Shown piece by piece: positions 17,970 through 58,774 of a stretch of 64,000 nucleotides of DNA (its first letter is position 1; every line of letters starts with the position of its first letter). A program made the translations under genes and the position numbers. The stretch is taken from positions 46,287-110,286 of the forward strand of contig SNVD02011435.1 of assembly GCA_013180625.2 (NCBI GenBank), in the 5' to 3' direction. The notes under the pieces are model-generated. The model ran no database searches. It was not told the DNA's origin and was given only the letters and a program-made list of their open reading frames with translations. The stretch comes from Boswellia sacra. Taxonomy: Eukaryota; Streptophyta; Magnoliopsida; Sapindales; Burseraceae.

Positions 17970-17974
17970 GTAAT

Positions 17975-19337
17975 TGACACATCCAAAAAAGGATTGTCTC
18001 CCAAGTATAGGAGTGTCGAAGTAATAAACCTGGTGAGACCGGGGTCGATCCACGAGGAAGGAGATTTTAGCGCTACAAATTATATGCTAAGCAAATATGA
18101 TATAATTGATTCAAAGATATGACAAAATAATATCAACAATAGATAAGAATAATTAAAATGCGCAAGTAAAAGGAATTAACACAATAATAATAAAAGCTAA
18201 GGTTAGGGCATCCGCCCTTGATATTTCGAATAAGGATAATTAGCCCATTTTAGTTATATGAATTATATTTGTTTCATTACCAATTTATACCACTTCTTGT
18301 AAATGGGTTCAAGCATCTAATGTGCCAATCATCATATGTCTACAACAAATCAAGGTTCCTAACTAGATTCGTGTCGGTAAGGAAGAACCATACATCATCT
18401 AGAAAGGATCCAAACATTTGATGTGCCAAGGATTGTCGACAATGGATCAAGACCTCCACTTTACGAGTGGTGTCAAGATTGATTAAGAAATTAAATATAA
18501 ATCATATTGAATAAACATTATAAGATTAAGATTATTAAGCACATATTAAGGGTCAGAGAATCCTTATTCTCATATCAAGGGTTTCCCTTTCACCTTAGCA
18601 AAAGAGAAATTAGAAGAACATTATAATAGAAAGAAAATAAAATGCAAGAAAAAGGAAATTCATTAATAACATAAACACACAAAACACAATACAAGATCCT
18701 AGCCAAAGCCAAAATGTTCCAGCCAAGGCCAAGATGCCCTAATGGGTCACAAGGCACCTCTATTTATAGATACATCCAGGGGCAAACTTGTCAAATTACA
18801 AGGGCATAATTGTCAAATATTAGTTATAAATATCTTTGACAATTGGGATCATTAGGCACTGACTTTGACCATCAATTTTGACATCGAAATGTTGTGAATT
18901 TTAATCATATGTCTTCATAAAAGTTGTAGATATTTCTCTCAGATTTCTAGAACATATTGATTTGCACAATTTGGATACGTATTTTGAGAGATACGGTCCA
19001 AATATTGAGGCATGGTCAGACTGGGCCGAGACTGTAGATGGGTTCACTTCAAGCCCAATTTTGGTCCACTAAGAGCCCGAATTTGATGATGCTTGTGAAA
19101 TGCAATCTTGTAGACAATTGAATCAGCTTTCCAAAACATTAAGAATTGCACTATTCTGATCTATAAATAGAGAGTTATGCCTATTTTATCGAACCTGTAA
19201 CAAAACCAAAATTAAGAGGAAGTTAATTCCAAAGATGCAAAGACTACAAATATGCTTAAGTTGAGAATTTAATGACACTATTAATGCAATATGATGAACT
19301 AAGCTCTTATTAAACATACATATTTAAGTGTTCATCA
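17975..19337 (-). repeat. Element 1 3' LTR
   Basis: 1363 bp; in plus-strand reading it starts TGACACATCC and ends GTTCATCA. It pairs with the LTR at 27800-29168. It lacks the ~172-bp module seen in the element 2 LTRs. Confidence 0.93.
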
Positions 19338-19349
19338 CACCCCCCAACT
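19338..19349 (-). other. Element 1 polypurine tract
   Basis: On the minus strand AGTTGGGGGGTG directly precedes the 3' LTR (TGATGAACAC). This is the expected primer for plus-strand DNA synthesis and is identical to the tract at 57191-57202 in element 2. Confidence 0.9.
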
Positions 19350-20666
19350 AGCTTATTGCTAGTCCCTAGCAATTAAAGCGTTATTATTTAGAAGTGATTT
19401 ATAGAATTTTACATCCAAGGTGGTCATTTATTGCACTCTCTTTGATTTTATCCAAATAAACAAACTCCCAACTGATTTTTTTTTAAATGACTCATGTACC
19501 CTTCAGTCAAGATATCAATAAACCTCCTTTTTGTGCTCAGTCAACACATGACTATGGGGCTTATAGAAAGAAGCCATATCGGTTCTAATATTTGTTAAGG
19601 CTAACAACTTTAGGTAGGGGGCATTCATTTATTTTATATATATATATATATGTGTTTTTTTTTGAAAGAATGCATCTTTAACCCATGTAGCGAGCCTTAG
19701 GCTAATGGCTCCCAGACCAGTTGGCCTTAGGGCATTAGGTGTTAAGACAACCCTTCGAGCTTAACGACTCGGGTTGCCGATGCTTTATTTTTGCTTAGAA
19801 ACTTATGGATAGTGCAATGTTCAATCCCATTAAGCTTTCTCCTTAATCCATGTAGCGAGCTTTGGGCAAATAGCTCCCAAACCAGTTGGTCTTAGGGTAT
19901 TAGGTGTTGAGGCACCCCTAGGGCTTAATTGCTCGAATTAAGGAGGCTACGAGACCAAACTTATCCACAATTGTTATTTTTTTCTTCTTTTTTTGTTTTT
20001 TTTTTGTTTTTTTTAACTTTCCCCTTCCTTTGTGTTGTTATCCTAAACAAAATAAAAGAACTCAAATATTACAACATTTCATTTTGCCACCCACAATCAT
20101 GCATCAAGGTATGTGTGTGTGTGTGAAGAAAGTCTCATGAATACTTGCTTAATGAGTACATAAGCACACAATTTTTTTTTTTAAATGATAAGGCTGTGAG
20201 AGTTCATAGATTTTGAATAATTCAAAGTGAAATGAATAAGACCGTCCTTGTTATAAAATTCAAAAATCAAGACTAAATATATCAAGTGTGGCTAAAATGA
20301 GTTCATAAGATCAAAATAAAATGACAAATTGGTTAGAATGGGTTTCAAGAGTTCAAACTGGCCCTCCTTACTCTGCCATTCCTGACCCAGAATGCGTCTC
20401 AAGAGGATTTGAACTCCTTACACCGCACTCTGAATCTAATTACTAACTCGCTTTTTTTTTTTGCAAGAAAAAAGAAAATTCAAGACACACTTATGTCTAC
20501 TATCCTTCCCCCCAACCAACCAAATGAAACATTGTCCTCAATGTTTAAATGTAGAGAGATAAAGTATAGGAGACATTACCTGAAACTTCTGTTATTCAAG
20601 AGAGATGACCTGAAGGACTCATAAAATAACATGCTAAAAATAAAATAAAATAAAAGACAAAAAAAA
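19350..20666 (-). other. Element 1 non-coding tail between LOG and the polypurine tract
   Basis: About 1.3 kb without a credible ORF. It contains two ~90-bp direct repeats at about 19683-19771 and 19848-19938 (period 165 bp), each including CATGTAGCGAGC and CCAGTTGG followed by TTAGG. The same layout is conserved in element 2, so the tail belongs to the family and is not a local insertion. Confidence 0.75.
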
Positions 20667-21316
20667 TTACAAACGGAGATTCAGATCCAATTTGCACTTT
20701 TTGTTTTGCCCTCCTGCCCAATTAATTTGAGTACTAGCTGGGTCAGGTTCATACTCAACTTCTTGTAATTTGTCAAGTAACTTACTAGCAGAAGTGGCAG
20801 AAACAAGGATCTGTCTCGCCCAATGTGGGATAAAATTTTGTTCTACAGCTGCATCAACAAAACTTATTAAAGGATCAAAGAAATTGTTAACATTCAACAA
20901 ACCTATGGGTTTTTGATGGAGGTTCAGTTGGGCCCAAGAGGCAATTTGAAAAATTTCTTCAAGAGTCCAAAGCCACCTGGTAAAGCAATAAAGGCATCTG
21001 AATTGATGAGCATATGTGCCATGCGTTCATGCATAGAGGAGACCTGTAACTCCTTCCCAACCGTTTTTCCAACAATGCTTTCTACAGCCAAAGCTTTAGG
21101 AATAACTCCTAACACTTGACTACCTCCTACATGTGCAGCTGTTGATACGCAACCCATTAACCCGAGGCTACCTCCCCCATAAACCACATGAATCTTTCTT
21201 TCAGCCAGTAGCCTACCAAGATAGTTTGCTACTTCTACAAACTCCTCACTTTTACCCGGTCGAGATCCGCAGAATACACATATCCTTTGGATTCGACGTT
21301 GTGAAGTTCCCTCCAT
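20667..21316 (-). pseudogene. LOG: Captured LOG cytokinin-activating enzyme, 1-nt frameshift
   Basis: LOG (cytokinin riboside 5'-monophosphate phosphoribohydrolase) releases active cytokinin bases from their nucleotides in the cytosol. The frame starts MEGTSQRRIQRICVFCGSRP and carries VVYGGGSLGLMG (residues 44-55), MHERMAH (95-101, with Arg98) and PGGFG (113-117), all family hallmarks. One base is missing within the PGGxGTxxE motif compared with element 2, which shifts the frame, and the C-terminal third is open in another frame. Without that deletion the gene would be 217 codons including the stop, the normal LOG length. There are no introns, although plant LOG genes usually have several. 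It lies 3' of integrase and ORF-X inside a TSD-flanked retroelement, with its own TATA box upstream. The end reads LDLNLRL. Confidence 0.9.
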
Positions 21317-21365
21317 GTCTATGCAACTCTCTAACTATGTGTGAAGAAGAGAACAAGACATGTGG

Positions 21366-21373
21366 TATTTATA
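21366..21373 (-). promoter_or_regulatory. TATA box upstream of the captured LOG (element 1)
   Basis: On the minus strand CTATAAATACC lies about 50 nt upstream of the LOG ATG at 21316, at a spacing that would give a short 5' leader. The corresponding position in element 2 reads CCATAAATACC. The promoter is inferred from motif and spacing only. Confidence 0.6.
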
Positions 21374-21631
21374 GAGTGCAAAAAGGTATGCTAATGATGA
21401 TATCTATCTAGGTAGCTCGGTTGTTTGTTGAAAAAGTTGACAATAATGCATAAAAATTCAAAAGATGATGAAATAAGACACCATAAGTCAAACAAAAGAT
21501 ACAAATTCAAAAATGACAGCTATGAGGTATTAAAATTCAAAAATGATGGCACGCATGCATATGTACAGGTAGTTGTGACTGTGGCTCACATCTTCCTCTG
21601 GTTTTACGTCCAGAAACGGCTTAAACACCTT

Positions 21632-22177
21632 CTATGAGTTGGGGATATGCTTCCCATCCAGTTTTCTTATAAACTGGCAAACAGGGTCGTTTTGAGTCAG
21701 ATTCCCAAGACTATAGCGTTCCTGCTCATCTCGGAATTGTGTCCACAAATTAAAATTTTCACGCTGCACAAGTCCACAAGAATGCGTCTCAAGAGTCGTT
21801 CAGATATCATTCAAAGACTCCTTACTCAGTCCATTCTTGATGAACTATACTTTATCCTCTCGATTGTTAGACAAATATCCCAAGGAGCGGCAACGCTGGT
21901 TACAAGTCCATCTTGCACATCTGAACAAACTTGTAACCTTTTCGCTCTTCGCTTTTTGGCGTAAGAGCTTTTTCCCATACCTGGCATGTGAGACATAAGA
22001 TTATCTGAAAATTCATAAGAAAATCGAACCTTGGCTTCAATTAACCATCTTACTTCGACAGGCATACCCTTACATCAACATCCTTAGTCTTTCTGCATGA
22101 GCTTTGTAAATTTTAAGCAAATCATTTGGAGGAAGAGAGGGAAAATGTTTGTGCAGATTTGAGAGAATGGTGTCCAT
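21632..22177 (-). pseudogene. ORF-X, accessory ORF of unknown function (element 1, frameshifted)
   Basis: Starts MDTILSNLHKHFPSL and matches the 182-codon ORF at 54328-54876 along its length. Compared with that copy it lacks two bases at about codon 36, giving an immediate TAA, and is one base short near the Cys cluster. I do not recognise the family. It sits between the integrase end and LOG, where Athila elements may carry an env-like or other extra ORF. Confidence 0.65.
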
Positions 22178-22301
22178 GTGAAAATGCGAGAAAAGAAAGG
22201 AAAATGAATGCAAGGTGAGCAACAGTTTTTAGGGAACTGAAAAACCGACTTTAAAAGTCATGGAGTACCGTATCCGCCACTTGACCGGGAAAAATCAATC
22301 C

Positions 22302-25300
22302 TTAAAAAGGATCGACTAAAGCAATGGACTCTTCATTTTGGTCAAAATTTTCAAAGAATGGTTTTAACCGTTGTCCATTAACTTTAAACACATTACCATT
22401 CTTTGGGTTCTCAATTTCAACTGCTCCATGAGGGAAAACATTTTTAACAATGAAAGGTCCAGTCCAACGAGACCGAAGTTTACCAGGAAACAAGTGCAAT
22501 CTTGAATCATACAAAAGAACTTTTTGTGAAGGTTCAAAAGATTTTCTAACAATGAATTTGTCATGAAAAACCTTCATTTTTTCTTTGTAGATTTTAGAGT
22601 TTTCATAAGCCTCATTCCTGATTTCTTCAAGTTCACTCAGTTGGAGTTTACGTAACTTGCAAGCATCATTCAAGTTTGTGTTAAATGTTTTAATGGCCCA
22701 ATAAGCTTTATGCTTAATTTTCACAGGCAAGTGACAAGGTTTTCCATAAACTAATCTATAAGGAGACATTCCTAATGATGTTTTGAAAGCAGTTCGGTAA
22801 GCCCAAAGTGCATCATTAAGTCTTAAAGACCAGTCTCTACGATTTAGGTTAACCGTTTTTTCTAAGATTTGTTTTATCTCCCTATTAGCTAATTCAACTT
22901 GTCTACTTGTTTGTGGGTGATAAGGTGTAGAAATTTTATAGGTTATTCCATATTTCTTCATTAGGGTTTCAAATGGTTTATTACAAAAATGCGTACCCCC
23001 ATCACTAATAATGGCTCGAGGAATTCCAAATCTACTCAAGATATTCTCTTTCAAGAATTTGACAACTGTTTTGTGGGCATTGTTTCGACATGGAATTGCC
23101 TCGACCCATTTTGAAACATAGTCTACTGCAACAAGGATATACACAAAACCAAATAACGGTGGAAAAGGTCCCATAAAATCAATACCCCAACAATCAAAGA
23201 CTTCAACAACAAGAATGGGATTCAAAGGCATCATGTTTCTTTTTGAAATGGTTCCCAATTTTTAACAATTTTCACACGTTTTGCAAAATGCATGTGCATC
23301 TTTAAATAAGGTAGGCCAATAAAATCCACATTGCAAGATTTTAGCAGCTATTTTTCTAGATGAAAAATGTCCTCCACATGCTTCGGAATGATAAAAGTTA
23401 ATGACACTACTTACCTCATTGTTGGGTATGCATCTTCTTATTATTTGATCCGGACAATATTTGAAAAGATACGGATCATCCCAGTAAAAATTTTTCACCT
23501 CGGTTAAAAATTTTCTTTTGTCTTGAGCATTCCAATGAGGTGGCATTTTCCTTGTCACAAGAAAATTTACAATGTTAGCAAACCAAGGTATAGTAGCAAT
23601 AGAAAATAAAAATTCATCAGGAAACGAATCATTGATATGTGAAGTTTCAATTAATGTCTCTGTCGTTAGTCTTGAAAGATGATCAGCAACGACATTTTCG
23701 ACTCCTTTCTTATCCTTTATTGTGATGTTGAATTCTTAGAGCAATAAGATCCACCGTATCAATCTAGGTTTTGCATCCTGTTTAGACATTAAATATCTCA
23801 CAGCTGCATGATCAGTGTAAACAATTGTGCGAGAACCAATTAAATAAGAACGAAATTTGTCCAATGCAAATACTACTGCAAGTAGTTCTTTTTCAGTTGT
23901 TGTATAATTCATTTGTGCATCATTTAAAGTCCTACTTGCATAGTATATCATATAAGGCTTACCTTCTTTTCTTTGTCCTAAGACAGCACCAACGGCATAG
24001 TCGCTTGCATCACACATCAATTCAAAAGGCAAGGACCAATCAGAAGATTGCATAATTAGAGCAGTTGTTAAAAGTCCAATTAATGTATCAAAGGCATTTT
24101 GACATTCTTGAGTCCATTCAAAGGAAGTATCTTTTATTAAGAGGTTACAAAGAGGTTTAGATATAGCACTGAAATTTCTTATGAACCTCCTATAAAATCC
24201 AGCATGCCCTAAGAATGAACGAACCTCTTTAACTGTTTTTGGTGGAGGCAAATGGGAAATTAATTCCACTTTTGCTTTATCCACTTCAATTCCTTTAGAA
24301 GACACCACATGACCTAAAACAATTCCCGAAGTGACCATATAATGACATTTTTCCCAATTCAAAATAAGACTTTTTTCTACACACCTTTTTAGGACTTTTT
24401 CTAAATTTTCAAGACAATTATCAAAAGAGTTTTCAAAGACAGTTAAATCATCCATGAAAACTTCTAAACAATGCTCAACCAAGTCACTGAAAATGCTTAA
24501 CATGCATCTTTGAAAAGTGGCTGAGGCATTACAAAGTCCAAAAGGCATTCTCCTAAATGTAAAAGTGCCGAAGGGGCACGTGAATGTGGTTTTTTCTTGG
24601 TCTTCGAGTGCAATGGAAATTTGATAATAGCCTGAGTATCCATCAAGAAAGCAGTAGTAGGGGTTTCCTGCTACTCTTTCAAGAATTTGGTCAAGGAACG
24701 GTAAGGGAAAATGGTCTTTTCTAATGACAGCATTTAATTTTCTATAATCAATGCACATCCTCCAACTAGATGAGGCACGAGTTGGTAATGATTCCCCCTT
24801 TTCATTTTTAACAACTGTAATGCCAGATTTTTTAGATACTACTTGTGTAGGGCTTACCCACTTACTATCAGAAATAGGATAGATAATTCTCACATCAAGT
24901 AGTTTGAGAACTTCAGCCCTAATGACCTCTTTCATGTGTGGATTTAATCTCCTTTGAGGTTGTTGAGATGTTTTGGCATTTTCCTCTAAATGTATTTTAT
25001 GTGTGCAAATTAAAGGGTTAATGCCTTTTATATCTTTTAAAGTCCACCCAATTGCATTTTTATGCCTTTTAAGCACTTCTATCAACTTACCTTGTTGCTC
25101 GCATGTGAGGGATGAAGAAATTACCACCGGATATGTCTGATTCTCCCCAAGATATGCATATTTCAGTCCTTCAGGTAAGGGCTTCAATTCTAACTTGGGA
25201 GCTTCCTCTTCCTTGCTTTCATTCATTTGCCCCAATTCTTCAAATCTTGATTTTGAGCCTTTTTCCAACACCTGTGCACAATCCAGTAAAGAACATATAT

Positions 25301-27663
25301 TAGAAAGATCATGTTCTAGTTTCATACTTGATTCTAACGAATTCACTAAACAAGTTTCCAAAGGGTCAGAAGAACTTCCTTTTCGGATGTGATCTTCCAC
25401 AATAGATTCGATCATATTAGCCTCCTCAATTTTATCTTCTTCTTCATGTGGTTGTTTGCACATATTGAAAACATTAAGTTCCAATGTCATGTTCCTAAAA
25501 GATAGCTTCATGACTCCATTCCTGTAATTAATCAAAGCATTAGAGGTAGCTAGAAATGGACGCCCTAAAATGACAGGAATTGAATTACATACTTCCACTA
25601 GTTGTGTGTCCAAGATAATAAAATCTACTGGGTAAATAAATTTATCGACTTGAACTAACACATCTTCTACTACTCCTCTTGGTACTTTAATTGATCTATC
25701 AGCAAGCAAAAGAGTCACAGAAGTTGGTTTTAACTCACCTAGATTGAGTTTATGAAAAATCGAATATGGAAGCAAATTCACACTAGCACCAAGATCAAGT
25801 CAATTTTATGGTCTCCAATAACACATGAAATTGTAAGACAACCTAGATCCTTATATTTCACTGTATTATTATTTTGAAGAATAGCACTTACTTGCTCAGC
25901 TAGAAATGCCTTCTTTTTCACATTCAGTTTTCTTTTCACAGTGCACAAGTCTTTCAAAAATTTTGCATAAGAAGATACCTATTTGATCATATCAAGCAAG
26001 GGAATGTTGACCTTTACCTGTTTGAAAATTTCAAAGATTTCAGAATTGTTAGTTGGCTTCTTTTGTGTGGCTAATGCTTGAGGAAATGAAGGCGCAGATG
26101 AGGATTTGGTTTCCCCTTCGCTAGGTATTGGTTTGGCAACCTCTTCCTGCCCTTTAGAGATCGATTCTTCTTCTTTCTCACAAGGGTCAGGAATGTGTTT
26201 TTCAATGACCTTACCATTGTGAAGGGTCATGACTCACTTGGCTTGGTCAAAATAATGGTTACTTGAACTCCCTGCATTTGCGTTAGATTGATCTTTGGGG
26301 TTTTGCAATGTTTGAGAAGGAAATTTTCCCTTCTCTTGGATGCTAAATGTAGATGCAAATTTTGCAAGAATTTCTAACAAATTTGCTAATGTTTGAGCAG
26401 TTTGACTATGGAAAGTCTCTTGCTTTGTAATGAATGAATGCAATGTTTCTTCAAGGTCATTCCTAGGGGGAGGAGCATATGCATGATCATGAGAATTTTG
26501 AAATTTTTGTTGTGTTTGAAAAGGGGCTTGTGAAGATTGTGCATGATTATTATTTTTCCAACTAAAATTTGGATGATTTCTCCAACCAGGATTATAGGTT
26601 TGTGAATATGGATTGTGATTTGGCCTTTTGAAAGTGTTCAAGGCATTGGCTTGTTCATGGAGACATTCCCTAAAGGCAGGCAAAGTTGGGCAATCATCAG
26701 TAAAATGGTCATTGTCATCACAAATATTACAGACATTTTCTTGAATAGAATTCAATTGACCACTCTTTTTCATTTCTAAAGCTTCAACTTTTCTAGCTAG
26801 GGATGCATATTTGGCTTGAAGGTCATGGTCTTCCCTAAGGTTGTAAATACCTCTATTGGATGTCGAGGTTTGGGCCTTGCTTGGTACCTCATAGGTGCCA
26901 GCAGTGTCCCAATTTTGTGCCTTTTCTGCCAAGAATCTAGGAAGTCAAGTGCTTCCTCAGGGTCTTTTTCTTTAAATTCTCCATTACACATTAATTCCAC
27001 TAGTTGCCTATCTTGAGGTGTTAACCCTTCATAGAAGTGTGCAACTACTCTCCAAGTCTCAAAACCATGGTGAGGACAGGTATTAAGTAGTTCCTTATAC
27101 CTATCCCAACATTGGTAAAGGGTTTCCCCTTGTTTTTGAGAGAAATCAGAAATTTGTCTTTTAAGAGAATTTGTTCTATGGGTGGGAAAATTTTTTTTCA
27201 AAAATTGTTGTTTCATCTCATCCCATGAACTGATGGAATTCGACCTCAAATTTTGTAGTCATGTTCTAGCTTTATCTTTTAAAGAAAAAGGAAAAAGCTT
27301 TAATCTAATGGTGTTTATGCTACAATTTGGGTCAGTGTAGGAGCTACATACCTCTTCAAAGAGTTTCAAGTGCGAATATGGGTTCTCCATGTCAAGGCCA
27401 TGAAAAGTGGGTAGAAGTCGAACAAAACTTGGTTTGAAATTGAAATGGATTGAATCTGGAGGAGAAACTACACAAGATGGTACACTAGTCCTTACCGGAT
27501 TCATGTAGTCTCTGAGGGTTCTTCGTTGGTTGTGATCATTTTGTTATGAACGGTTGTCCCTTTCATCCATGAATATTTCCTCATGATTGTCGGCCATGTT
27601 TTCTAAGGAAGATGATGTTTTTCTAACAAGTCTACCACTAGATGTTCGTGACCAAATTTTCAT
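22302..27663 (-). pseudogene. Element 1 gag-pol (Athila-like), interrupted
   Basis: The start MKIWSRTSSGRLVRK is conserved with element 2. In order along the strand are: gag core (IRLKLFPFSLKDKARTWL-like, about 27300); a CX2CX4HX4C zinc knuckle CNICDDNDHFTDDC (about 26700); aspartic protease related to LDLGASVNLLP (about 25790); RT with FMDDLTVF (about 24450); RNase H with MCDASDYAVGAVLG (about 24010); an HHCC integrase domain (23262-23558); and the DDE core (22302-23258) with ISDGGTHF and GIDFMGP. It is broken by frameshifts in gag and protease. At least three Gln-to-stop (CAA to TAA) changes are seen, in gag near 27550 and in pol at 23736 and 23259. The integrase core is the longest intact piece (318 codons). 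Confidence 0.9.
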
Positions 27664-27776
27664 GCAAGAAAGAGAGAAGAAAAGAGGGGAAAAGATGAAC
27701 ACACAAAAAAATAAAAAATTTAGATCTAAGATGAGAAAAGAGAATACTTACAATTTTGCACGTCAATTTTTACCTT

Positions 27777-27793
27777 CCCCGGCAACGATGCCA
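27777..27793 (-). other. Element 1 primer binding site, tRNA-Asp type
   Basis: The minus strand reads TGGCATCGTTGCCGGGG, six bases inside the 5' LTR. Element 2 has TGGCGCCGTTGCCGGGG, which is complementary to the 3' end of plant tRNA-Asp(GUC) plus CCA. The element 1 copy carries two transitions. Confidence 0.85.
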
Positions 27794-27799
27794 AAAACT

Positions 27800-29168
27800 T
27801 GACACATTCGAAAAAGGATTGTCTCCCAAGTATAGGAGTGTCGAAGTAATAAACCCGGTGAGACCGGGGTCGATCCACGAGGAAGAAGATTTTAGCGCTA
27901 CAAATTATATGCTAAGCAAATATGATATAATTGATTCAAAGATATGACAAGATAATATCAACAATAGATAAGAATAATTAAAATGCGCAAGTAAAAGGAA
28001 TTAATACAATAATAATGAAAGCTAAGGTTAGGGGATCCGCCCTTGATATTTCGAATAAGGATAATTAGCCCATTTTAGTTATATGAATTATATTTGTTTC
28101 ATTTACCAACATTTATACCACTTCTTGTAAATGGGTTCAAGCATCCAATGTGCCAATCACCATATGTCTACAACAAATCAAGGTTCCTAACTAGATTCGT
28201 GTCGGTAAGGAAGAACCATACATCATCTAGAAAGGATCCAAGCATTTGATGTGCCAAGGATTGTCGACAATGGATCAAGACCTCCACTTTACGAGTGGTG
28301 TCAAGATTGATTAAGAAATTAAATATAAATCATATTGAATAAACATTATAAGATTAAGATTATTAAGCACATATTAAGGGTTAGAGAATCCTTATTCTCA
28401 TATCAAGGGTTTCACCCTTTCACCTTAGCAAAAGAGAAATTAGAAGAACATTATAATAGAAAGAAAATAAAATGTAAGAAAAAGGAAATTTATTAATAAC
28501 ATAAACACACAAAACACAATACAAGATCCTAGCCAAAGCCAAAATGTTCTAGCCAAGGCCAAGATGCCCTAATGGGTCACAAGGCACCTCTATTTATAGA
28601 TACATCCAGGGGCAAACTTGTCAAATTACAAGGGCATAATTGTCAAATATTAGTTGTAAATATCTTTGACAATTGGGATCATTAGGCACCGACTTTGACC
28701 ATCAATTTTGACATCGAAATGTTGTGAATTTTAATCACATGTCTTCATGAAAGTTGTAGATATTTCTCTCAGCTTTCTAGAACATATTGATTTGCACAAT
28801 TTGGATACGTATTTTGAGAGATACGGTCCAAATACTGAGGCCTGGTCAGACTGGGCCGAGACTGTAGATGGGTTCACTTCAAGCCCAATTTTGGTCCACT
28901 AAGAGCCCGAATTTGATGATGCTTGTGAAATGCAATCTTGTAGAAAATTGAATCATCTTTCCAAAACATTAAGAATTGCACCATTCTGATCTATAAATAG
29001 AGAGTTATGCCCATTTTATCAAACCTATAACAAAACCAAAATTAAGAGGAAGTTAATTCCAAAGATGTAAAGACTATAAATATGCTTAAGTTGAGGAATT
29101 TAATGACACTATTAATGCAATATGATGAACTAAGCTCTTATTAAACATATATATATAAGTGTTCATCA
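27800..29168 (-). repeat. Element 1 5' LTR with promoter
   Basis: 1369 bp. On the minus strand it begins TGATGAACAC and ends GAATGTGTCA. A TATA box (CTATAAATAGAGG on the minus strand, plus-strand 28587-28599) marks the likely start of the R region. The same box is conserved in all full LTRs of the family in this window. Confidence 0.92.
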
Positions 29169-29173
29169 GTAAT

Positions 29174-46723: not shown

Positions 46724-46728
46724 TAAGA

Positions 46729-48256
46729 TGATAAACACTTAAATATGCATATTTAATAAGAGTTTAATTCATCATATTGTATTAATAGTGTCATTAAATT
46801 CCTCAACTTAAGCATATTTGCAGCATTTGCATCTTTGGAATTAATTCCTCTTAATTTTGGTTTTGTTACAGGTTCGGTAAAATAGGCATAACTCTCGATT
46901 TATAGATCAGAATGGTTCAATTCTTAATGTTTTGGAAAGCTGATTCAATTTTCTACAAGATTGCATTTCACAAGCATAATCAAATTCGGGCTTTTAGTGG
47001 ACCAAAATTGGGCTTGAAGTGAACCCATCTACAGTCTCGGCCCAGTCTGACCAGGCCTCAGTATTTGGACCGTATCTCTCAAAATACGTATCCATATTGT
47101 GCAAATCAATATGTTATAGAAAGCTGAGAGAAATATCTACAACTTTCATGAAGACATGTGATTAAAATTCACAACATTTCGATGTCAAAATTGATGGTCA
47201 AAGTCGGTGCCTAATGATCCCAATTGTCAAAGATATTTACAACTAATATTTGACAATTATGCCCTTGTAATTTGACAAGTTTGCCCCTGGATGTATCTAT
47301 AAATAGAGGTGCCTTGTGACCCATTAGGGCATCTTGGCCTTGGCTGGAACATTTTGGCTTTGGCTAGGATCTTGTATTGTGTTTTGTGTGTTTATGTTAT
47401 TAATGAATTTCCTTTTTCTTACATTTTATTTTCTTTCTATTATAATGTTCTTCTAATTTCTCTTTTGCTAAGGTGAAAGGGTGAAACCCTTGATATGAGA
47501 ATAAGGATTCTCTAACCCTTAATATGTGCTTAATAATCTTAATCTTATAATGTTTATTCAATATGATTTATATTTAATTTCTTAATCAATCTTGACACCA
47601 CTCGTAAAGTGGAGGTCTTGATCCATTGTCGACAATCCTTGGCACATCAAATGCTTGGATCCTTTCTAGATGATGTATGGTTCTTCCTTACCGACACGAA
47701 TCTAGTTAGGAACCTTGATTTGTTGTAGACATATGGTGATTGGCACATTGGATGCTTGAACCCATTTACAAGAAGTGGTATAAATATTGGTAATGAAACA
47801 AATATAATTCATATAACTAAAATGGGTTAATTATCCTTATTTGAAATATCAAGGGCGGATCCCCTAACCTTAGCCTTCATTGTTATTGTGTTAATTCCTC
47901 TTGTATTTTAATTATTCTATTGTTTATGAACTTTTTATTTTATTTACTATGGTAGGTTCTACCACCTTATGAAATTGTTCTTTAATTTACTATGGTTGGT
48001 TATACCACCTATTTCCATGGATGGTTTTACCTCCTCTTGCTTTTTGTTTTATATTTGAATGGTCGGTAATACCGCCTACCATCTTACATATTTATTGATA
48101 TTATCTTGTCATTTCATTGAATTATTCACACTATATTTGCTTATCTTATAATTTGTAACGCTAAAATTTCCTTCCTCGTGGATCTACTTCGGACTCACCG
48201 GGTTTATTACTTCGACACTCCTATACTTGGAAGACAATCCTTTTTCGGATGTGTCA
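46729..48256 (+). repeat. Element 2 5' LTR with promoter
   Basis: 1528 bp, TGATAAACAC...GGATGTGTCA. The TATA box CTATAAATAGAGG is at 47297-47309. It contains a ~172-bp module (47925-48096) that is absent from the element 1 LTRs. Confidence 0.94.
47925..48096 (+). repeat. LTR-specific module with four hairpin-like GGT...ACC motifs
   Basis: Four related motifs lie at about 47948, 47991, 48017 and 48058: TATGGTAGGTTCTACCACCT, TATGGTTGGTTATACCACCT, CATGGATGGTTTTACCTCCT and AATGGTCGGTAATACCGCCT. Each is an imperfect palindrome around GGT...ACC. The same block is in the 3' LTR at about 58430-58605 but is missing from both LTRs of element 1, where the flanking sequence is continuous. Confidence 0.8.
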
Positions 48257-48262
48257 AGTTTT

Positions 48263-48279
48263 TGGCGCCGTTGCCGGGG
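48263..48279 (+). other. Element 2 primer binding site, tRNA-Asp
   Basis: TGGCGCCGTTGCCGGGG lies six bases after the LTR. It is the complement of the 3' end of plant tRNA-Asp(GUC) including CCA, a primer used by Athila-type elements. Confidence 0.9.
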
Positions 48280-48391
48280 AAGGTAAAAATTGGCGTGCAA
48301 AATTGTAAGTATTCTCTTTTCTCATCTTAGATCTAAATTTTTTATTTTTTTTGTGTTCATCTTTTCCTCTCTTTTCTTCTCTCTTTCTTGC

Positions 48392-51300
48392 ATGAAAATT
48401 TGGTCACGAACATCTAGTGGTAGACTTGTTAGAAAAACATCATCTTCCTTAGAAAACATGGCCAACAATCATGAGGAAATATTCACGGATGAAGGGGACA
48501 ACCGTTCGCAACAAAATGATCAAAACCAACGAAGAACCCTCAAAGACTACATGAATCCGGTAAGGACTAGTGCACCATCTTGTGTAGTTTCTCCTCCAGA
48601 TTCAATCCATTTCAATTTCAAACCAAGTTTTGTTCGACTTCTACCCACTTTTCATGGCCTTGACATGGAGAACCCATATTCGCACTTGAAACTCTTTGAA
48701 GAGGTATGTAGCTCCTACACTGACCCAAATTGTAGCATAAACACCATTAGATTAAAGCTTTTTCCTTTTTCTTTAAAAGATAAAGCTAGAACATGGCTAC
48801 AAAATTTGAGGTCGAATTCCATCAGTTCATGGGATGAGATGAAACAACAATTTTTGAAAAAATTTTTTCCTACCCATAGAACAAATTCTCTTAAAAGACA
48901 AATTTCTGATTTCTCTCAAAAACAAGGGGAAACCCTTTACCAATGTTGGGATAGGTATAAGAACTACTTAATACCTGTCCTCACCATGGGTTTGAAACTT
49001 GGAGAATAGTTGCACACTTCTATGAAGGGTTAACACCTCAAGATAGGCAACTAGTAGAATTAATGTGTAATGGAGAATTTAAAGAAAAAGACCCTGAGGA
49101 AGCACTTGACTTCCTAGATTCCTTGGCAGAAAAGGCACAAAATTGGGACACTGCTGGCACCTATGAGGTACCAGCAAGGCCCCAACCTCGACATCCAATA
49201 GAGGCATTTACAACCTTAGGGAAGACCATGACCTTCAAGCCAAATTTGCATCCCTAGCTAGAAAAGTCGAGGCTTTAGAGATGAAAAAGAGTGGTCAATT
49301 GAAATCTATTCAAGAAAATGTCTGTAACATTTGTGATGACAATGACCATTCTACTGATGATTGCCCAACTTTGCCTGCCTTTAGGGAATGTCTCCATGAA
49401 GAAGCCAATGCCTTGAACACTTTCAAAAGGCCAAATCACAATCCATATTCACAACCTACAATCCTGGTTGGAGAAATCATCCAAATTTTAGCTGGAAAAA
49501 TGACAATCATGCACAATCTTCACAAGTCCCTTTTCAAACACGACAAAATTTTCAAAATTCTCATGATCATGCATATGCTCCTCCTCCTAGGAATGACCTT
49601 CAAGAAACATTGCATTCATTCATTACAAAGCAAGAGACTTTCAATAGCAAACTGCTCAAACAGTTAGCAAATTTGTCAGAAACTCTTGCAAAATTTGCAT
49701 CTACATTTAGCATCCAAGAGAAGGAAAATTTCCTTCTCAAACATTGCAAAACCCCAAAGATCAATCTAACTCAAATGTAGGGAGTTCAAATAACCATTAT
49801 TTTGACCAAGCTAAGTCAGTCATGACCCTTCGCAATGGTAAGGTTGTTGAAAAACATATTCCTAACCCTCGTGAGAAAGAAGAAGAATCGATCTCTAAAG
49901 GGCAGGAAGAGGTTGCCAAACCAACACCTAGCGAAGAGGAAACCAATCCTCATCTGTGCCTCCATTTCCTCAAGCATTAGCCACACAAAAGAAGCCAACT
50001 CACAATTCTGAAATCTTTGAAATTTTCAAACAGGTAAAGGTCAACATTCCCTTGCTTGATGTGATCAAACAGGTACCTTCTTATGCAAAATTTTTGAAAG
50101 ACTTATGCACTGTGAAAAGAAAACTGAATGTGAAAAAGAAGGCATTTCTAGCTGAGCAAGTAAGTGCTATTCTTCAAAATAATAATACAGTGAAATACAA
50201 GGATCCAAGTTATCCTACAATTTCATGTGTTATTGGAGAGCATAAAATTGAACAAGCTTTACTTGATCTTGGTGCTAGTGTGAATTTGCTTCCATATTTG
50301 GTTTTTCAGAAACTCAATTTAGGTGAGTTAAAACTGACTTCTGTGACTCTTTTGCTTGCTGATAGATCAATTAAAGTACAAGAGGAGTAGTAGAAGATGT
50401 GTTAGTTCAAGTCGATAAATTCATTTACCCAGTGGATTTTATTGTCTTGGACACACAACCAGTGGAAGTATGTAATTCTATTCCTGTCATTTTAGGGCGT
50501 CCATTTCTAGCTACCTCTAATGCTTTGATTAATTGCAGGAATGGAGTCATGAAGCTATCGTTTTGGAACATGACATTGGAACTTAATGTTTTCAATATGT
50601 GCAAACAACCACATGAAGAAGAAGATGAAATTGAGGAGGCTAATATGATCGAATCTATTATGGAAGGTCACATCCAAAAAGGGAGTTCTTCTGACCCTTT
50701 GAAAACTTGTCTAGTGAATTCATTAGAATCAAGCATGGAACTAGAGTCTGATCTTTCTGATATATGTTCTTTATTGGATTGTGCACAGGTGATGGAAAAA
50801 GGCTCAAAATCAAGATTTGAAGAATTGGGGCAAATGAATGAAAGCAAGGAAAATGAAGCTCCCAAGTTAGAATTGAAGCCCTTGCCTGAAGGACTGAAAT
50901 ATGCATATCTTGGGGAGTGATGAACACTTAAATATGCATGTTTAATAAGAGTTTAGTTCATCATATTGCATTAATAGTGTCATTAAATTCCTCAACTTAA
51001 GCATATTTGTAGCATTTGCATCTTTGGAATTAATTCCTCTTAATTTTGGTTTTGTTACAGGTTCGGTAAAATGGGCATAACTCTCTATTTATAGATCAGA
51101 ATGGTGCAATTCTTAATGTTTTGGAAAGCTGATTCAATTGTCTACAAGATTGCATTTCACAAGCATCATCAAATTCGAGCTCTTAGTAGACCAAAATTGG
51201 GCTTGAAGTGAACCCATCTACAGTCTCGGCCCAGTCTGACCAGGCCTCAGTATTTGGACCGTATCTCTCAAAATACGTATCCAAATTGTGCAAATCAATA

Positions 51301-54195
51301 TGTTCTAGAAATCTGAGAGAAATATCTACAACTTTTATGAAGACATATGCATATCTTGAGAAAAATCAGACATATCCGGTGGTAATTTCTTCATCACTCA
51401 CATGCGAGCAACAAGGTAAGTTGATAGAAGTGCTTAAAAGGCATAAAAATGCAATTGGGTGGACTTTAAAAGATATAAAAGGCATTAACCCTTTAATTTA
51501 CACACATAGAATACATTTAGAGGAAAATGCCAAAACATCTCAACAACCTCAAAGGAGATTAAATCCACACATGAAAGAGGTCATTAGGGCTGAAGTTCTT
51601 AAACTACTTGATGTGGGAATTATCTATCATATTTCTGATAGTAAGTGGGTAAGCTCTACACAAGTAGTACCTAAGAAATCTGGCATTACAGTAGTTAAAA
51701 ATGAAAAGGGTGAATTATTGCCAACTCGTGTCTCATCTAGTTGGAGGATGTGCATTGATTATAGAAAATTAAATGCTGTCACTAGAAAAGACCATTTTTC
51801 CTTACCCTTTCTTGACCAAATTCTTGAAAGAGTAGCAGGAAACCCCTACTACTGCTTTCTTGATGGATACTCAGGCTACTATCAAATCCCTATTGCACTT
51901 GAAGACCAAGAAAAGACCACATTCACGTGCCCCTTTGGCACTTTTGCATTTAGGAGAATGCCTTTTGGACTTTGTAATGCCCTAGCCACTTTTCAAAGAT
52001 GCATGTTAAGCATTTTCAGTGACATGGTTGAGCATTGTTTAGAACTTTTCATGGATGATTTAACTGTCTTTGGAAACTCTTTTGATAATTGTCTTGAAAA
52101 TTTAGAAAAAGTCCTAAAAGGGTGTGTAGAAAAAGGTCTTATTTTGAATTGGGAAAAATGTCATTATATGGTCACTTCAGGAATTGTTTTAGGTCATGTG
52201 GTGTCTTCTAAAGGAATTGAAGTGGATAAAGCAAAAGTAGAATTAATTTCCCATTTGCCTCCACCAAAAACAGTTAAAGAGGTCCGTTCATTCTTAGGGC
52301 ATGCTAGATTTTATAGGAGGTTCATAAGAAATTTTAGTGCTATATCTAAACCTCTTTGTAACCTTTTAATAAAAGATACTTCCTTTGAATGGACCCAAGA
52401 ATGTCAAAATGCCTTTGATACATTAATTGGGCTTTTAACAACTGCTCCAATTATGCAATCTCCTGATTGGTCCTTGCCTTTTGAACTGATGTGTGATGCA
52501 AGTTACTATGCCGTTGGTGCTGTCTTAGGACAAAGAAAAGAAGGTAAGCCTTATGTCATATACTATGCAAGTAGGACTTTAAATGATGTGCAAATGAATT
52601 ACACAACAACTGAAAAAGAACTACTTGCAGTAGTATTTGCCTTGGACAAATTTCGTTCTTATTTAATTAGTTCTCCCACAATTGTTTACACTGACCATGC
52701 AGCTGTGAGATATTTAATGTCTAAACAGGATGCAAAACCTAGATTGATACGGTGGATCTTATTGCTCCAAGAATTCAACATCACAATAAAGGATAAGAAA
52801 AGAGCCGAAAATGTCGTTGCTGATCATCTTTCAAGGCTAACGACAGAGACATTAATTGAAACTTCACCTATCAATGATTCTTTTCCTGATGAGTTTTTAT
52901 TTTCTGTTGCTACTATACCTTGGTTTGCTAATATTATAAATTTTCTTGCGACAGGGAAAATGCCACCTCATTGGAATGCTCAAGACAAAAGATAATTTTT
53001 AACCGAGGTGAAAAATTTTTACTGGGATGACCCATATCTGTTCAAATATTGTCCAGACCAAATAATGAGAAGATGCATACCCGACAATGAGGTAAGTAAT
53101 GTCATTAACTTTTGTCATTCTGAAGCATGTGGAGGACATTTTTCATCTAGAAAAATAGCTGCTAAGATCTTACAATGTGGATTTTATTGGCCCACCTTAT
53201 TTAAAGATGCACATGCATTTTGCAAAACATGTGAAAATTGTCAAAAATTGGGATCCATTTCAAAAAGAAACATGATACCTTTGAATCCCATTCTTGTTGT
53301 TGAAATCTTTGATTGTTGGGGTATTGATTTTATGGGACCCTTTCTACCGTCATTTGGTTTTGTGTATATCCTTGTTGCAGTAGAATATGTTTCAAAATAG
53401 GTCGAGGCAACTCCATGTCGAAACAATGACCACAAAATAGTTGTCAAATTCTTGAAAGAGAATATCTTGAGTAGATTTGGAATTCCTCGAGCCATTATTA
53501 GTGATGGGGGTACGCATTTTTGTAATAAACCATTTGAAACCTTAATGAAGAAATATGGAATAACCCATAAAATTTCTACACCTTATCACCCACAAACAAG
53601 TGGACAAGTTGAATTAGCTAATAGGGAGATAAAACAGATCTTAGAAAAAACGGTTAACCCAAATCGTAAAGATTGGTCTTTAAGACTTAGTGATGCACTT
53701 TGGGCTTACCGAACTGCTTTCAAAACATCATTGGGAATGTCTCCTTATAGATTAGTTTATGGAAAACCTTGTCACTTGCCAGTGGAAATTGAACATAAAG
53801 CTTATTGGGCCATTAAAACATTTAACACAAACTTGAATGATTCTTGCAAGTTACGAAAACTCCAACTGAGTGAACTTGAAGAAATCAGGAATGAGGCTTA
53901 TGAAAATTCTAAAATCTACAAAGAAAAACTGAAGGTTTTTCATGACAAATTTATTGTTAGAAAATCTTTTGAACCTTCACAAAAAGTTCTTTTGTATGAT
54001 TCAAGATTGCATTTGTTTCCTGGTAAACTTCGATCTCGTTGAGCTGGGCCTTTTATTGTTAAAAATGTTTTCCCTCATGGAGCAGTTGAAATTGAGAACC
54101 CAAAGAATGGTAATGTGTTTAAAGTTAATGGACAACGGTTAAAACCATTCTTTGAAAATTTTTGCCCAAAACGAAGAGTCCATTGCTTTAATCGA
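48392..54195 (+). pseudogene. Element 2 gag-pol (Athila-like), interrupted
   Basis: Gag starts MKIWSRTSSGRLVRK (48392). A 1-nt loss ends the first frame at 49009. The zinc knuckle CNICDDNDHSTDDC is at about 49330, and the protease site LDLGASVNLLP at about 50263. The pol frame is cut by the LTR fragment at 50918-51346. RT (FMDDLTVFG, about 52048), RNase H (MCDASYYAVGAV, about 52490, with Tyr for the Asp seen in element 1), an HHCC finger (53085-53245) and the DDE integrase core ([24 protein letters not shown]) follow in one frame. That frame has three isolated stops at 52993, 53398 and 54040, and a frameshift in the last ~20 codons. Two of the stops are Trp-to-stop transitions. Confidence 0.9.
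50918..51346 (+). repeat. Truncated LTR fragment inserted in pol
   Basis: 429 bp equal to the first part of the family LTR, starting exactly at its TGATGAACAC terminus and stopping at ...GAAGACAT. The 14-bp sequence ATATGCATATCTTG occurs on both sides (50899-50912 and 51345-51358) but only once in element 1. It separates the protease side of pol from RT. Confidence 0.9.
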
Positions 54196-54327
54196 TCCTT
54201 TTTAAGGATTGATTTTTCCCGGTCAAGTGGCGGATACGGTACTCCGTGACATTTAAGGTCGGTTTTTCAGTTCCCTAAAAACTGTTGCTCACCTTGCATC
54301 CATTTTCTTCTCTCTTATTTTCTTTAC

Positions 54328-54876
54328 ATGGATACCATTCTCTCAAAATTGCACAAACATTTTCCCTCTCTTCCTCAAAATGATTTGCTTAAAATTTATA
54401 AAGCTCATGCAGAAAGACTAAGGTTGTTGATGCGTAAGGGTATTCCTGCTGATTTAAGATGGTTAATTGAAGCCAAGGTTCGATTCTCATGTGAGTTTTC
54501 AGATAATCTTGTTTCCCATATGCCAGGTTTGGGAAAAAGCTCTTATGCCAAAAAGCGAAGAGCGAAAAGGTTACAAGTTTGTCCCAGATGTGCAAGATGG
54601 ACTTGTAACTAGCGTTGCCGCTCCTTGGGATATTTGTCTAACAATCAAGAGGATAAACTACAGTTCATCAAGAATGGACTGAGTAAGGAGTCTTTGGATG
54701 ATATCCAAACGACTCTTGAGACACATTCTTGTGGACTTGTGCAGCGTGAAATTTTTAATTTGTGGACACAATTCCGAGATGAGCAGGAACACTATAGTCT
54801 TGGGAATCTAACTCAAAACGACCCTGTTTGCCAGTTTATAAGAAAACTAGATGGGAAGCATATCCCCAACTCATAG
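54328..54876 (+). pseudogene. ORF-X, accessory ORF of unknown function (element 2, one internal stop)
   Basis: A frame of 182 codons starts MDTILSKLHKHFPSL and ends LDGKHIPNS, open throughout except for a TAG at codon 95, where element 1 has CAG (Gln). It has a basic nuclear-localisation-like stretch KKRRAKR (75-81) followed at once by a Cys cluster (C85, C88, C93, C97), suggesting a small zinc-binding, nucleic-acid-binding fold. The rest is helical and polar, with no signal peptide or membrane helix, so it is not env-like. It lies between integrase and LOG and is 318 bp from the LOG start. I do not recognise the family. Confidence 0.7.
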
Positions 54877-55136
54877 AAGGTGTTTAAGCCGTTTCTGGAC
54901 GTAAAACCAGAGGAAGATGTGAGCCACAGTCACAACTACTTGTACATGTGCATGCGTGCCATCATTTTTGAATTTTAATGCCTCATAGCTGTCATTTTTG
55001 AATTTGCATCTTTTGTTTGACTTATGGTGTCCTATTTTATCGTCTTTTTTTGAATTTCTATGCATAATTGTCAAAATTTTCAACAAGCAACCGAGCTACC
55101 TATTTAGATGTCATCATTAGTATACGTTTTTGCACT

Positions 55137-55149
55137 CCATAAATACCCC
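55137..55149 (+). promoter_or_regulatory. TATA-like box upstream of the captured LOG (element 2)
   Basis: CCATAAATACCCC lies about 50 nt upstream of the LOG ATG. Element 1 has the better match CTATAAATACC at the same place. It suggests a private promoter for LOG inside the element. Confidence 0.5.
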
Positions 55150-55194
55150 ATCTCTTATTCTCTTCTTCACACATAGTTAGAGAGTTACATAGAC

Positions 55195-55843
55195 ATGGAG
55201 GGAACTTCAAAACGTCGAATCCAAAGGATATGTGTAGTCTGTGGATCTCGACCAGGTAAAAGTGAAGAGTTCGTAGAAGTAGCGAATTATCTTGGTAGGC
55301 TACTGGCTGAAAGAAAGATTCATGTGGTTTATGGGGGAGGTAGCCTCGGGTTAATGGGTTGTGTGTCAACAGCTGCACATGTAGGGGGTACTCAAGTTTT
55401 AGGAGTTATTCCTAAAGCTTTGGCTGTAGAAAGTTGTTGGAAAAACGGTTGGGAAGGAGTTACAGGTCTCCTCTATGCATGAACGCATGGCACATATGCT
55501 CATCAATTCAGATGCCTTTATTGCTTTACCAGGTGGCTTTGGCACTCTTGAAGAAATTTTTCAAATTGCCTCTTGGGCCCAACTGAATCTCCATCAAAAA
55601 CCCATAGGTTTGTTGAATGTTAACAATTTCTTTGATCCTTTAATAAGTTTTGTTGATGCAGCTGTAGAACAAAATTTTATCCCTCATTGGGCGAGAAAGA
55701 TCCTTGTTTCTGCCACTTCTGCTGGTGAGTTACTTGACAAATTACAAGAAGTTGAGTATGAACCTGACCCAGCTAGTACTCAAATTAATTGGGCAGGAGG
55801 GCAAAACAAAAAGTGCAAATTGGATCTGAATCTCCGTTTGTAA
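55195..55843 (+). pseudogene. LOG: Captured LOG cytokinin-activating enzyme, 2-nt frameshift
   Basis: Starts MEGTSKRRIQRICVVCGSRP and carries YGGGSLGLMG (46-55). After codon 79 two bases are missing relative to element 1, which shifts the frame into a stop. The remainder is open from 55475 and contains MHERMAHM (Arg98 in family numbering) and the full PGGFGTLEE motif (113-121) with the catalytic-type Glu121, then WAQLNLHQKPIGLLNV as in plant LOG proteins. The end is LDLNLRL, an LxLxL pattern. It is 649 nt against 651 expected for 216 aa plus stop, which is normal LOG size. There are no introns. The break differs from the one in element 1. In plants LOG acts in the cytosol and nucleus to release free cytokinin. 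Confidence 0.92.
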
Positions 55844-57190: not shown

Positions 57191-57202
57191 AGTTGGGGGG
57201 TG
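57191..57202 (+). other. Element 2 polypurine tract
   Basis: AGTTGGGGGGTG lies immediately before the 3' LTR TGATAAACAC. Confidence 0.9.
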
Positions 57203-58769: not shown

Positions 58770-58774
58770 TAAGA

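What the first reader, a model, noticed from the sequence alone, without database searches (positions are those of the whole stretch)
20667..21316. Athila-like retrotransposon family carrying a LOG cytokinin-activation gene
Seen: two independent, TSD-flanked elements (17975-29168 and 46729-58769) each hold a LOG coding copy at the same internal position, 3' of integrase and ORF-X and 5' of the polypurine tract. The gene is intronless and of normal family length (216 aa), with VVYGGGSLGLMG, Arg98 and PGGFGTLEE motifs. Known: LOG enzymes make free cytokinin in one step. Inference: an ancestral element captured a spliced LOG mRNA and spread it, so a mobile element could have carried a hormone-activating enzyme. 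I am not aware of a described retroelement family with LOG as a resident gene.
Basis: partly seen in the sequence, partly recalled or inferred. Interest (0 to 1): 0.9.

Follow-up and report, generated by a model that had tools for sequence, protein, structure and literature searches.

The report
Retrotransposon lineage carrying a cytokinin-enzyme gene
Two separately inserted, now broken copies of a plant retrotransposon carry, beside their own genes, an intron-free copy of a LONELY GUY hormone-activation gene; such genes had been reported inside plant retrotransposons before, but here the gene shows signs of having been kept by selection while the element was still jumping.

Summary
Two Ty3/gypsy elements (E1 17975-29168, minus; E2 46729-58769, plus) have different 5-bp target duplications, unrelated flanks and about 2.4% LTR divergence each, so they are independent insertions. 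Both hold an intronless LOG gene between integrase and the 3' LTR, in sense orientation. Neither LOG copy is intact: each has its own frameshift, at a different codon. Between the copies LOG has 12 synonymous and 6 other changes (omega about 0.18; P about 3e-4 against neutrality), so it was probably kept by selection in the transposing lineage. Two substrate-pocket residues reported constant in known LOGs differ in both copies (Lys100 to Met, Glu125 to Gln), so cytokinin activation cannot be assumed. The claim that no such family is described fails: PMC9289625 reports the LOG (YgdH) domain in Gypsy-type elements of two Citrus species and poplar, citing a 2011 paper. Host, further copies and a host LOG tree could not be examined, because the genome search machine did not complete.

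The parts
17975..29168 (-). E1: Athila-like LTR retrotransposon with 5-bp TSD GTAAT at 17970-17974 and 29169-29173
27800..29168 (-). E1 5' LTR
   Evidence: LTR pair p = 0.0235 over 1364 aligned sites; ends read
17975..19337 (-). E1 3' LTR
27776..27793 (-). E1 primer binding site, two differences from the E2 one
   Evidence: sequence; the tRNA-Asp assignment is recalled
26234..27249 (-). E1 gag, broken into two overlapping frames; Retrotrans_gag PF03732 in the first
23736..25781 (-). E1 RT and RNase H frame
   Evidence: PF00078, PF17917, PF17919
22302..23258 (-). E1 integrase frame
   Evidence: PF00665 1e-16
21632..22177 (-). E1 ORF-X, broken; its piece 21829-22074 matches carlavirus nucleic-acid-binding protein weakly
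   Evidence: PF01623 E = 3.5e-4, 20.9 bits, equal to the cut-off; PF05515 17.9 bits, below its cut-off of 23
20667..21316 (-). E1 LOG gene copy, intronless, 1-nt gap at codon 117
21366..21373 (-). TATA-like TATAAATA 50 bases upstream of the LOG ATG in E1 (one base differs in E2)
   Evidence: sequence; 18 occurrences in the 64-kb window, both strands
19338..19350 (-). E1 polypurine tract next to the 3' LTR
   Evidence: sequence
46729..58769 (+). E2: second Athila-like element with 5-bp TSD TAAGA at 46724-46728 and 58770-58774
46729..48256 (+). E2 5' LTR
   Evidence: LTR pair p = 0.0242 over 1528 aligned sites; ends read
57203..58769 (+). E2 3' LTR
48263..48280 (+). E2 primer binding site, starts TGG
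   Evidence: sequence; the tRNA-Asp assignment is recalled
48290..50920 (+). E2 gag and protease region, broken
   Evidence: PF03732; frames; no protease family matched
50918..51346 (+). Internal copy of the first 429 bases of the LTR, interrupting E2 pol
51208..54042 (+). E2 RT, RNase H and integrase frames, broken
   Evidence: PF00078, PF17917, PF17919, PF17921 above cut-off; PF00665 30.2 bits, below its cut-off of 32.6
54328..54876 (+). E2 ORF-X with one internal stop at 54610; first piece 54328-54609 matches carlavirus nucleic-acid-binding protein
   Evidence: PF01623 1.2e-7 (32 bits, cut-off 20.9), PF05515 3.7e-6 (27.5 bits, cut-off 23)
55195..55843 (+). E2 LOG gene copy, intronless, 2-nt gap at codons 80-81
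57190..57202 (+). E2 polypurine tract next to the 3' LTR
   Evidence: sequence

Best explanation
An ancestor of these Athila-like elements took up the spliced transcript of a plant LOG gene and held it as an extra sense gene between integrase and the 3' LTR. That lineage then transposed with the gene aboard, giving at least these two independent insertions. While the lineage was active the LOG reading frame was kept by purifying selection; after the copies parted both decayed, each by a different frameshift. Shown: independent insertions, shared position and orientation, absence of introns, excess of synonymous change, both copies broken. Inferred: capture by template switching or read-through from a spliced RNA (likely, about 0.8); a benefit of the protein to the element, for example raising free cytokinin or another purine base in dividing cells that pass new insertions to the next generation (about 0.3); expression from the 5' LTR or from a promoter taken along with the gene (open).
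For: TSDs differ and E1 flanks do not match E2 flanks. E1-E2 divergence of 3.8-4.4% in gag-pol exceeds the about 2.4% of each LTR pair, so the common ancestor predates both insertions. LOG sits at the same place with alignable sequence on both sides. LOG changes: 12 synonymous, 6 other in 214 compared codons, omega 0.18, P = 3.7e-4 and 3.2e-4 with methylation-context rates. The element's own genes by the same count: RT-RNase H 0.37, INT 0.48, PR part 0.56, gag pieces 0.56 and 0.51, ORF-X 0.46. LOG genes of peanut mostly have 7 exons and 6 introns (PMC13257298, passages). LOG in plant Gypsy elements was reported independently (PMC9289625 section 12).
Against: Only two copies were seen, so selection rests on 18 substitutions. 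The LOG ratio is not significantly different from that of pooled gag-pol (12:6 against 70:94, Fisher P = 0.079), and by the same test the PR part and both gag pieces do not individually depart from neutrality (P = 0.078, 0.11, 0.24). The multi-exon parent gene in the host was not found because the genome could not be searched. A TATA-like box 50 bases upstream of the ATG in E1 is not expected of a plain mRNA copy. Both copies share Lys100 to Met and Glu125 to Gln at pocket positions, which speaks against canonical LOG activity.
Confidence: 0.75

Rival explanations
1. Passenger transduction: the LOG copy was picked up once and carried along in a few copies with no benefit to the element.
For: Both copies are broken. 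[quoted passage not shown] Expected non-synonymous changes from decay after insertion alone are about 11, against 6 seen (P = 0.065), so the low count is only marginal by that measure.
Against: 12 of 18 LOG changes are synonymous where about 26% is expected without selection. LOG/YgdH passed a filter of at least five consensus elements per species in two Citrus species (PMC9289625), so it is not a one-off in that genus.
Confidence: 0.2
2. The captured protein is no longer a cytokinin-activating LOG but a related nucleotide hydrolase with another substrate. This rival concerns function only and is compatible with the capture history.
For: Pocket positions Lys100 and Glu125, identical in CgLOG, AtLOG3, OsLOG and CpLOG by PMC4979012 section 6, are Met and Gln in both copies. 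The pieces are only about 52% identical to AtLOG3 (58/112 and 55/106), while the two Arabidopsis proteins compared share 77/112 and 68/92. Some plant LOGs mainly release the riboside (PMC11593424, abstract and passages). NCBIfam's cytokinin-LOG equivalog NF058542 scores 81.7 and 51.6 bits on the two pieces against a cut-off of 300, though pieces could hardly reach it.
Against: Catalytic Arg99 and Glu122 positions, Met96, His97, Trp129 and the PGGxGTxxE motif are kept (motif in one frame only in E2). The same changes may occur in a host LOG branch that was not seen here.
Confidence: 0.35
3. The two elements are copies of one another by segmental duplication.
For: High identity (94.6-94.9% in the two long BLAST matches) over the element bodies.
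Against: Different TSDs; no E1 flank matches an E2 flank; E1 lies about 370 bases from a copia gag relic while E2 lies inside a 60-bp tandem array.
Confidence: 0.01
4. Each element captured LOG separately.
For: None found.
Against: Same position, same alignable non-coding sequence on both sides, and LOG divergence (2.8%) below that of gag-pol.
Confidence: 0.01

Closest known systems
Gypsy-type elements with a YgdH (LOG) domain in Citrus sinensis, C. clementina and P. trichocarpa (PMC9289625, citing Steinbauerova et al. 2011 Genetica 139:1543)
   Same: LOG-family domain inside plant Ty3/gypsy LTR retrotransposons, in at least five consensus elements per Citrus species.
   Different: In the section and passages read the paper gives only a domain screen for it; position, frame status, selection, pocket residues and a neighbouring virus-like ORF are not described there. 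Whether the window is from one of these species is unknown. The 2011 paper is not held; that its abstract speaks of two Athila-like elements similar to LOGL4 is recalled, not seen.
Phalaenopsis Gypsy elements with an AlkB m6A demethylase ORF (PMC9289625)
   Same: A plant Gypsy lineage that kept a captured host-type enzyme through rounds of replication.
   Different: Different enzyme; activity shown in vitro there; large (25 kb) elements with a dual RNase H as in Tat elements.
Retroduplicated NLR genes inside LTR retrotransposons of pepper, tomato, potato and rice (PMC5664825, passages)
   Same: Intron-free copies of multi-exon host genes inside LTR elements, with purifying selection reported in pepper.
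   Different: About 72% of those in pepper lie in elements without gag-pol; different gene family.
Maize Bs1 (PMC13317346 and PMC7264820, passages and parts read)
   Same: Host gene sequence transduced into an LTR element.
   Different: Bs1 carries segments of three genes, none with a full-length ORF; here one gene of full family length.

Membership tests
Athila lineage of Ty3/gypsy | LTRs with TG...CA ends and a 5-bp target duplication | tested here: met
Athila lineage of Ty3/gypsy | Gypsy order gag - RT - RNase H - integrase | tested here: met
   no protease family was matched
Athila lineage of Ty3/gypsy | No chromodomain and no second RNase H (separates it from chromoviruses and Tat/Ogre/Retand) | tested here: inconclusive
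   no such Pfam match in the eight frames, but broken frames and the gaps between them were not searched
[quoted passage not shown] tRNA-Asp is among those used) | tested here: inconclusive
   PBS starts TGG; the tRNA-Asp assignment is recalled, no tRNA set was compared
Athila lineage of Ty3/gypsy | Athila ORF-1 domain PF03078 (in 16% of Athila elements, PMC6317226) | tested here: not met
   no match; found in a minority of members, so not required
Athila lineage of Ty3/gypsy | RT/RH/INT phylogeny inside the Athila clade | not tested
   no reference set of plant elements was available
LONELY GUY phosphoribohydrolase | LOG/TIGR00730 fold family | tested here: met
LONELY GUY phosphoribohydrolase | PGGxGTxxE motif with catalytic Arg and Glu | tested here: met
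   in one frame in E2; in E1 the frameshift falls inside it
LONELY GUY phosphoribohydrolase | Pocket residues Met96, His97, Lys100, Glu125, Trp129 | tested here: not met
   3 of 5 kept; Lys100 is Met and Glu125 is Gln in both copies
LONELY GUY phosphoribohydrolase | Releases free cytokinin from the riboside monophosphate | not testable with these tools
   needs an enzyme assay
[quoted passage not shown]
   usual LOG structure from peanut, PMC13257298
Retro-captured host gene in an LTR element | A multi-exon parent gene in the same genome | not tested
   The genome search unreachable in 14 of 14 tries
Carlavirus-type nucleic-acid-binding protein (ORF-X) | Match to PF01623 above its cut-off | tested here: met
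   E2 piece 32 bits against 20.9; E1 piece 20.9 bits, equal to the cut-off; 0 of 6 controls (5 shuffles, 1 reversal) matched it
Carlavirus-type nucleic-acid-binding protein (ORF-X) | Same fold and nucleic-acid binding | tested here: inconclusive
   single-sequence model has mean pLDDT 54.9; binding not testable

The most novel reading that the evidence does not exclude
This Athila-like lineage assembled a two-gene 3' cassette: a plant RNA-virus-type cysteine-rich nucleic-acid-binding protein (ORF-X) followed by a LOG enzyme with a changed substrate pocket. Both were kept by selection while the element was mobile. The cassette would act on the host cell (RNA-level defence and purine or cytokinin metabolism), like accessory genes of a virus, rather than on transposition itself.
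Probability: 0.15. Interest if true: 0.8.

Novelty: new member of a known kind. Interest (0 to 1): 0.42.

Why it matters
Plant LTR elements often carry extra genes of unknown origin. A case where the source (LOG) is plain, and where the gene evolves under constraint like the element's own genes, lets one ask whether a retrotransposon profits from handling a plant growth hormone or its precursors. The neighbouring ORF-X, with its resemblance to a plant RNA-virus protein, would be a second import and seems the less expected of the two.

Tried and rejected
Segmental duplication: rejected. Separate captures: rejected. Chance match to LOG: rejected. Chance match of ORF-X to the viral family: 0 of 6 scrambled controls matched PF01623 or PF05515; 2 of the 6 gave weak matches to other families at E 0.12 and 0.029. 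Methylation-driven mutation as the cause of the synonymous excess: expected fraction stays 0.26. Structure of the ORF-X piece: mean pLDDT 54.9, so no fold search was made. Relatives in viral contigs: none for the ORF-X piece (3 stretches matched a pattern, none confirmed) or for the LOG piece (17 matched, none confirmed). Reading frame across the E1 empty site: no frame of 60 codons or more ran across it on the plus strand; one of 90 on the minus strand does, and was not followed. No tRNA found in the window.

Paper searches (10 of 10 used) were seen as listings, capped at 15 or 20 rows in several (20 of 10,782; 15 of 376; 20 of 59). In those titles and abstract starts no paper names a LOG gene in a retrotransposon; PMC9289625, listed for other reasons, turned out to report it in its text. 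None of the 15 papers listed of 59 names, in title or abstract start, a carlavirus-type protein inside a retrotransposon. Neither shows absence from print, since the lists are capped and most subscription papers are not held.

Full report
What is there. Two LTR retrotransposons lie in the window. E1 spans 17975-29168 on the minus strand, E2 46729-58769 on the plus strand. Their ends are TG...CA with perfect 5-bp target duplications, GTAAT and TAAGA. LTRs are about 1.36 kb in E1 and 1.53-1.57 kb in E2, with pair divergence 0.0235 and 0.0242. At the intergenic rate of 1.3e-8 used in PMC5664825 (passages) that is roughly 0.9 million years each, an inference that depends on the rate. Pfam finds Retrotrans_gag, RVT_1, RNase H and integrase domains in gypsy order; no chromodomain or second RNase H was matched in the eight frames given. 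That fits the Athila branch, but no RT tree could be made and Athila ORF-1 (PF03078) was not found, so 'Athila-like' is a likely placement and not a tested one.

LOG. Between integrase and the 3' LTR both elements hold a LOG-family gene in sense orientation: E1 20667-21316, E2 55195-55843. Family matches of the open pieces are strong. The two copies align over 651 columns as 216 codons and a stop, without introns; peanut LOG genes mostly have 7 exons and 6 introns, range 3-7 exons (PMC13257298, passages). Neither copy is intact: E1 has a 1-nt gap at codon 117 and E2 a 2-nt gap at codons 80-81. The gaps differ, so they most likely arose after the copies parted. gag and pol are broken in both, so neither copy looks able to move by itself today. 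tblastn of the LOG and ORF-X pieces finds only these two places in the window.

Independent insertions. TSDs differ, no E1 flank matches an E2 flank at E <= 0.01, E1 lies about 370 bases from a copia gag relic and E2 sits inside a 60-bp tandem array with related units on both sides. E1-E2 divergence in gag-pol is 3.8-4.4%, more than the about 2.4% of each LTR pair. The LOG-bearing ancestor therefore predates both insertions, and the element moved at least twice with LOG aboard.

Selection. I counted changes between the copies against a neutral spectrum taken from the LTR pairs and the stretch between LOG and the 3' LTR. LOG: 12 synonymous and 6 other changes in 214 codons, expected synonymous share 0.26, P = 3.7e-4, omega about 0.18; with CG/CHG/CHH-specific rates P = 3.2e-4. 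The same count gives RT-RNase H 28:30 (omega 0.37, P = 1.5e-4), integrase 15:21 (0.48, P = 0.025), protease part 13:20 (0.56, P = 0.078), gag pieces 10:17 and 4:6 (0.56 and 0.51, P = 0.11 and 0.24; the two gag pieces overlap by 136 bases in different frames), and ORF-X 14:19 in 179 codons (0.46, P = 0.025). So LOG looks constrained at least as much as the element's own genes; the difference from pooled gag-pol is not significant (P = 0.079). The test rests on one pair of copies and 18 changes, and non-synonymous changes expected from decay after insertion alone (about 11) exceed the 6 seen only marginally (P = 0.065).

Is it a cytokinin-activating LOG? [quoted passage not shown] alanine replacement of the tested residues, S19A excepted, nearly abolished activity. 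In the window the catalytic positions, Met96, His97 and Trp129 are kept, but Lys100 is Met and Glu125 is Gln in both copies. The lysine is present in 5 of 5 chains aligned (two of them, 5zbj and 5zbk, nearly the same protein) and the glutamate in 2 of 2 aligned. The element pieces are about 52% identical to AtLOG3, while the two Arabidopsis proteins compared share 69-74%. Either the parent was a divergent host LOG, or the gene has changed in the element; no host LOG could be fetched. A changed substrate is quite possible.

How it came in. Absence of introns and sense orientation point to a spliced RNA, taken up by template switching or read-through during reverse transcription. A TATA-like box lies 50 bases upstream of the ATG in E1 and differs by one base in E2. 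TATAAATA is found 18 times in the window on both strands, so chance within 100 bases is near 1.4%. If real, the captured transcript began upstream of the normal start, as in read-through. This is a lead only.

ORF-X. Between integrase and LOG lies a second extra frame. Its first piece in E2 (54328-54609) matches Carla_C4 PF01623 at 1.2e-7 and Viral_NABP PF05515 at 3.7e-6, both above the curated cut-offs. The E1 piece reaches PF01623 at 3.5e-4, just at the cut-off, and PF05515 at 0.0032, below it. None of six scrambled controls matched either family. The second E2 piece matches nothing convincing, and the other three E1 pieces nothing. A model of the first E2 piece is of low confidence. The element thus may carry a protein of plant RNA-virus type next to LOG; whether this is homology or a short shared basic and cysteine-rich motif is open.

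What is known. PMC9289625 (section 12 read) screened 121 angiosperm genomes and found the YgdH domain, 'otherwise found in LONELY GUY', in Gypsy consensus elements of Citrus sinensis and C. clementina, and of P. trichocarpa without its filter, in line with Steinbauerova et al. 2011. The 2011 paper is not held; that its abstract names two Athila-like elements similar to LOGL4 is my recall. LOG in plant Gypsy elements is therefore in print. PMC7264820 (first two of three parts read) reviews extra ORFs and gene transduction; PMC13317346 (passages) reviews capture in plants. What this case adds is the anatomy of two independent copies, evidence of constraint, the pocket changes and the ORF-X match.

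Limits. Copy number, a host LOG tree and expression were not tested. The large protein database was switched off.

Verdict. A real captured gene in a real, formerly mobile element; the general phenomenon is known, the functional claim is unproven, and the virus-like neighbour deserves its own look.

Noticed in passing
54328-54609 (+) and 21829-22074 (-): ORF-X pieces match the carlavirus nucleic-acid-binding protein family PF01623 (1.2e-7 in E2, 3.5e-4 in E1).
   Followed up: partly
50918-51346 (+): Internal copy of the first 429 bases of the E2 LTR within pol, flanked by a short duplication of pol sequence; possibly a template switch.
   Followed up: partly
58789-59335, with related units just left of 46729: 60-bp tandem array into which E2 inserted.
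   Followed up: partly
17170-17604 (+) and 32517-32867 (+): Copia-type gag and retroviral SH3-like domain relics on either side of E1, perhaps one copia element split by E1.
   Followed up: no
27062-27170 (+): Rfam snoR71 match (41.7 bits, gathering 40) antisense to the E1 gag; perhaps a family of repeat origin or a chance match.
   Followed up: no
40728-42657 and 61410-63335: Direct repeat of about 1.9 kb at 83% identity, not identified.
   Followed up: no
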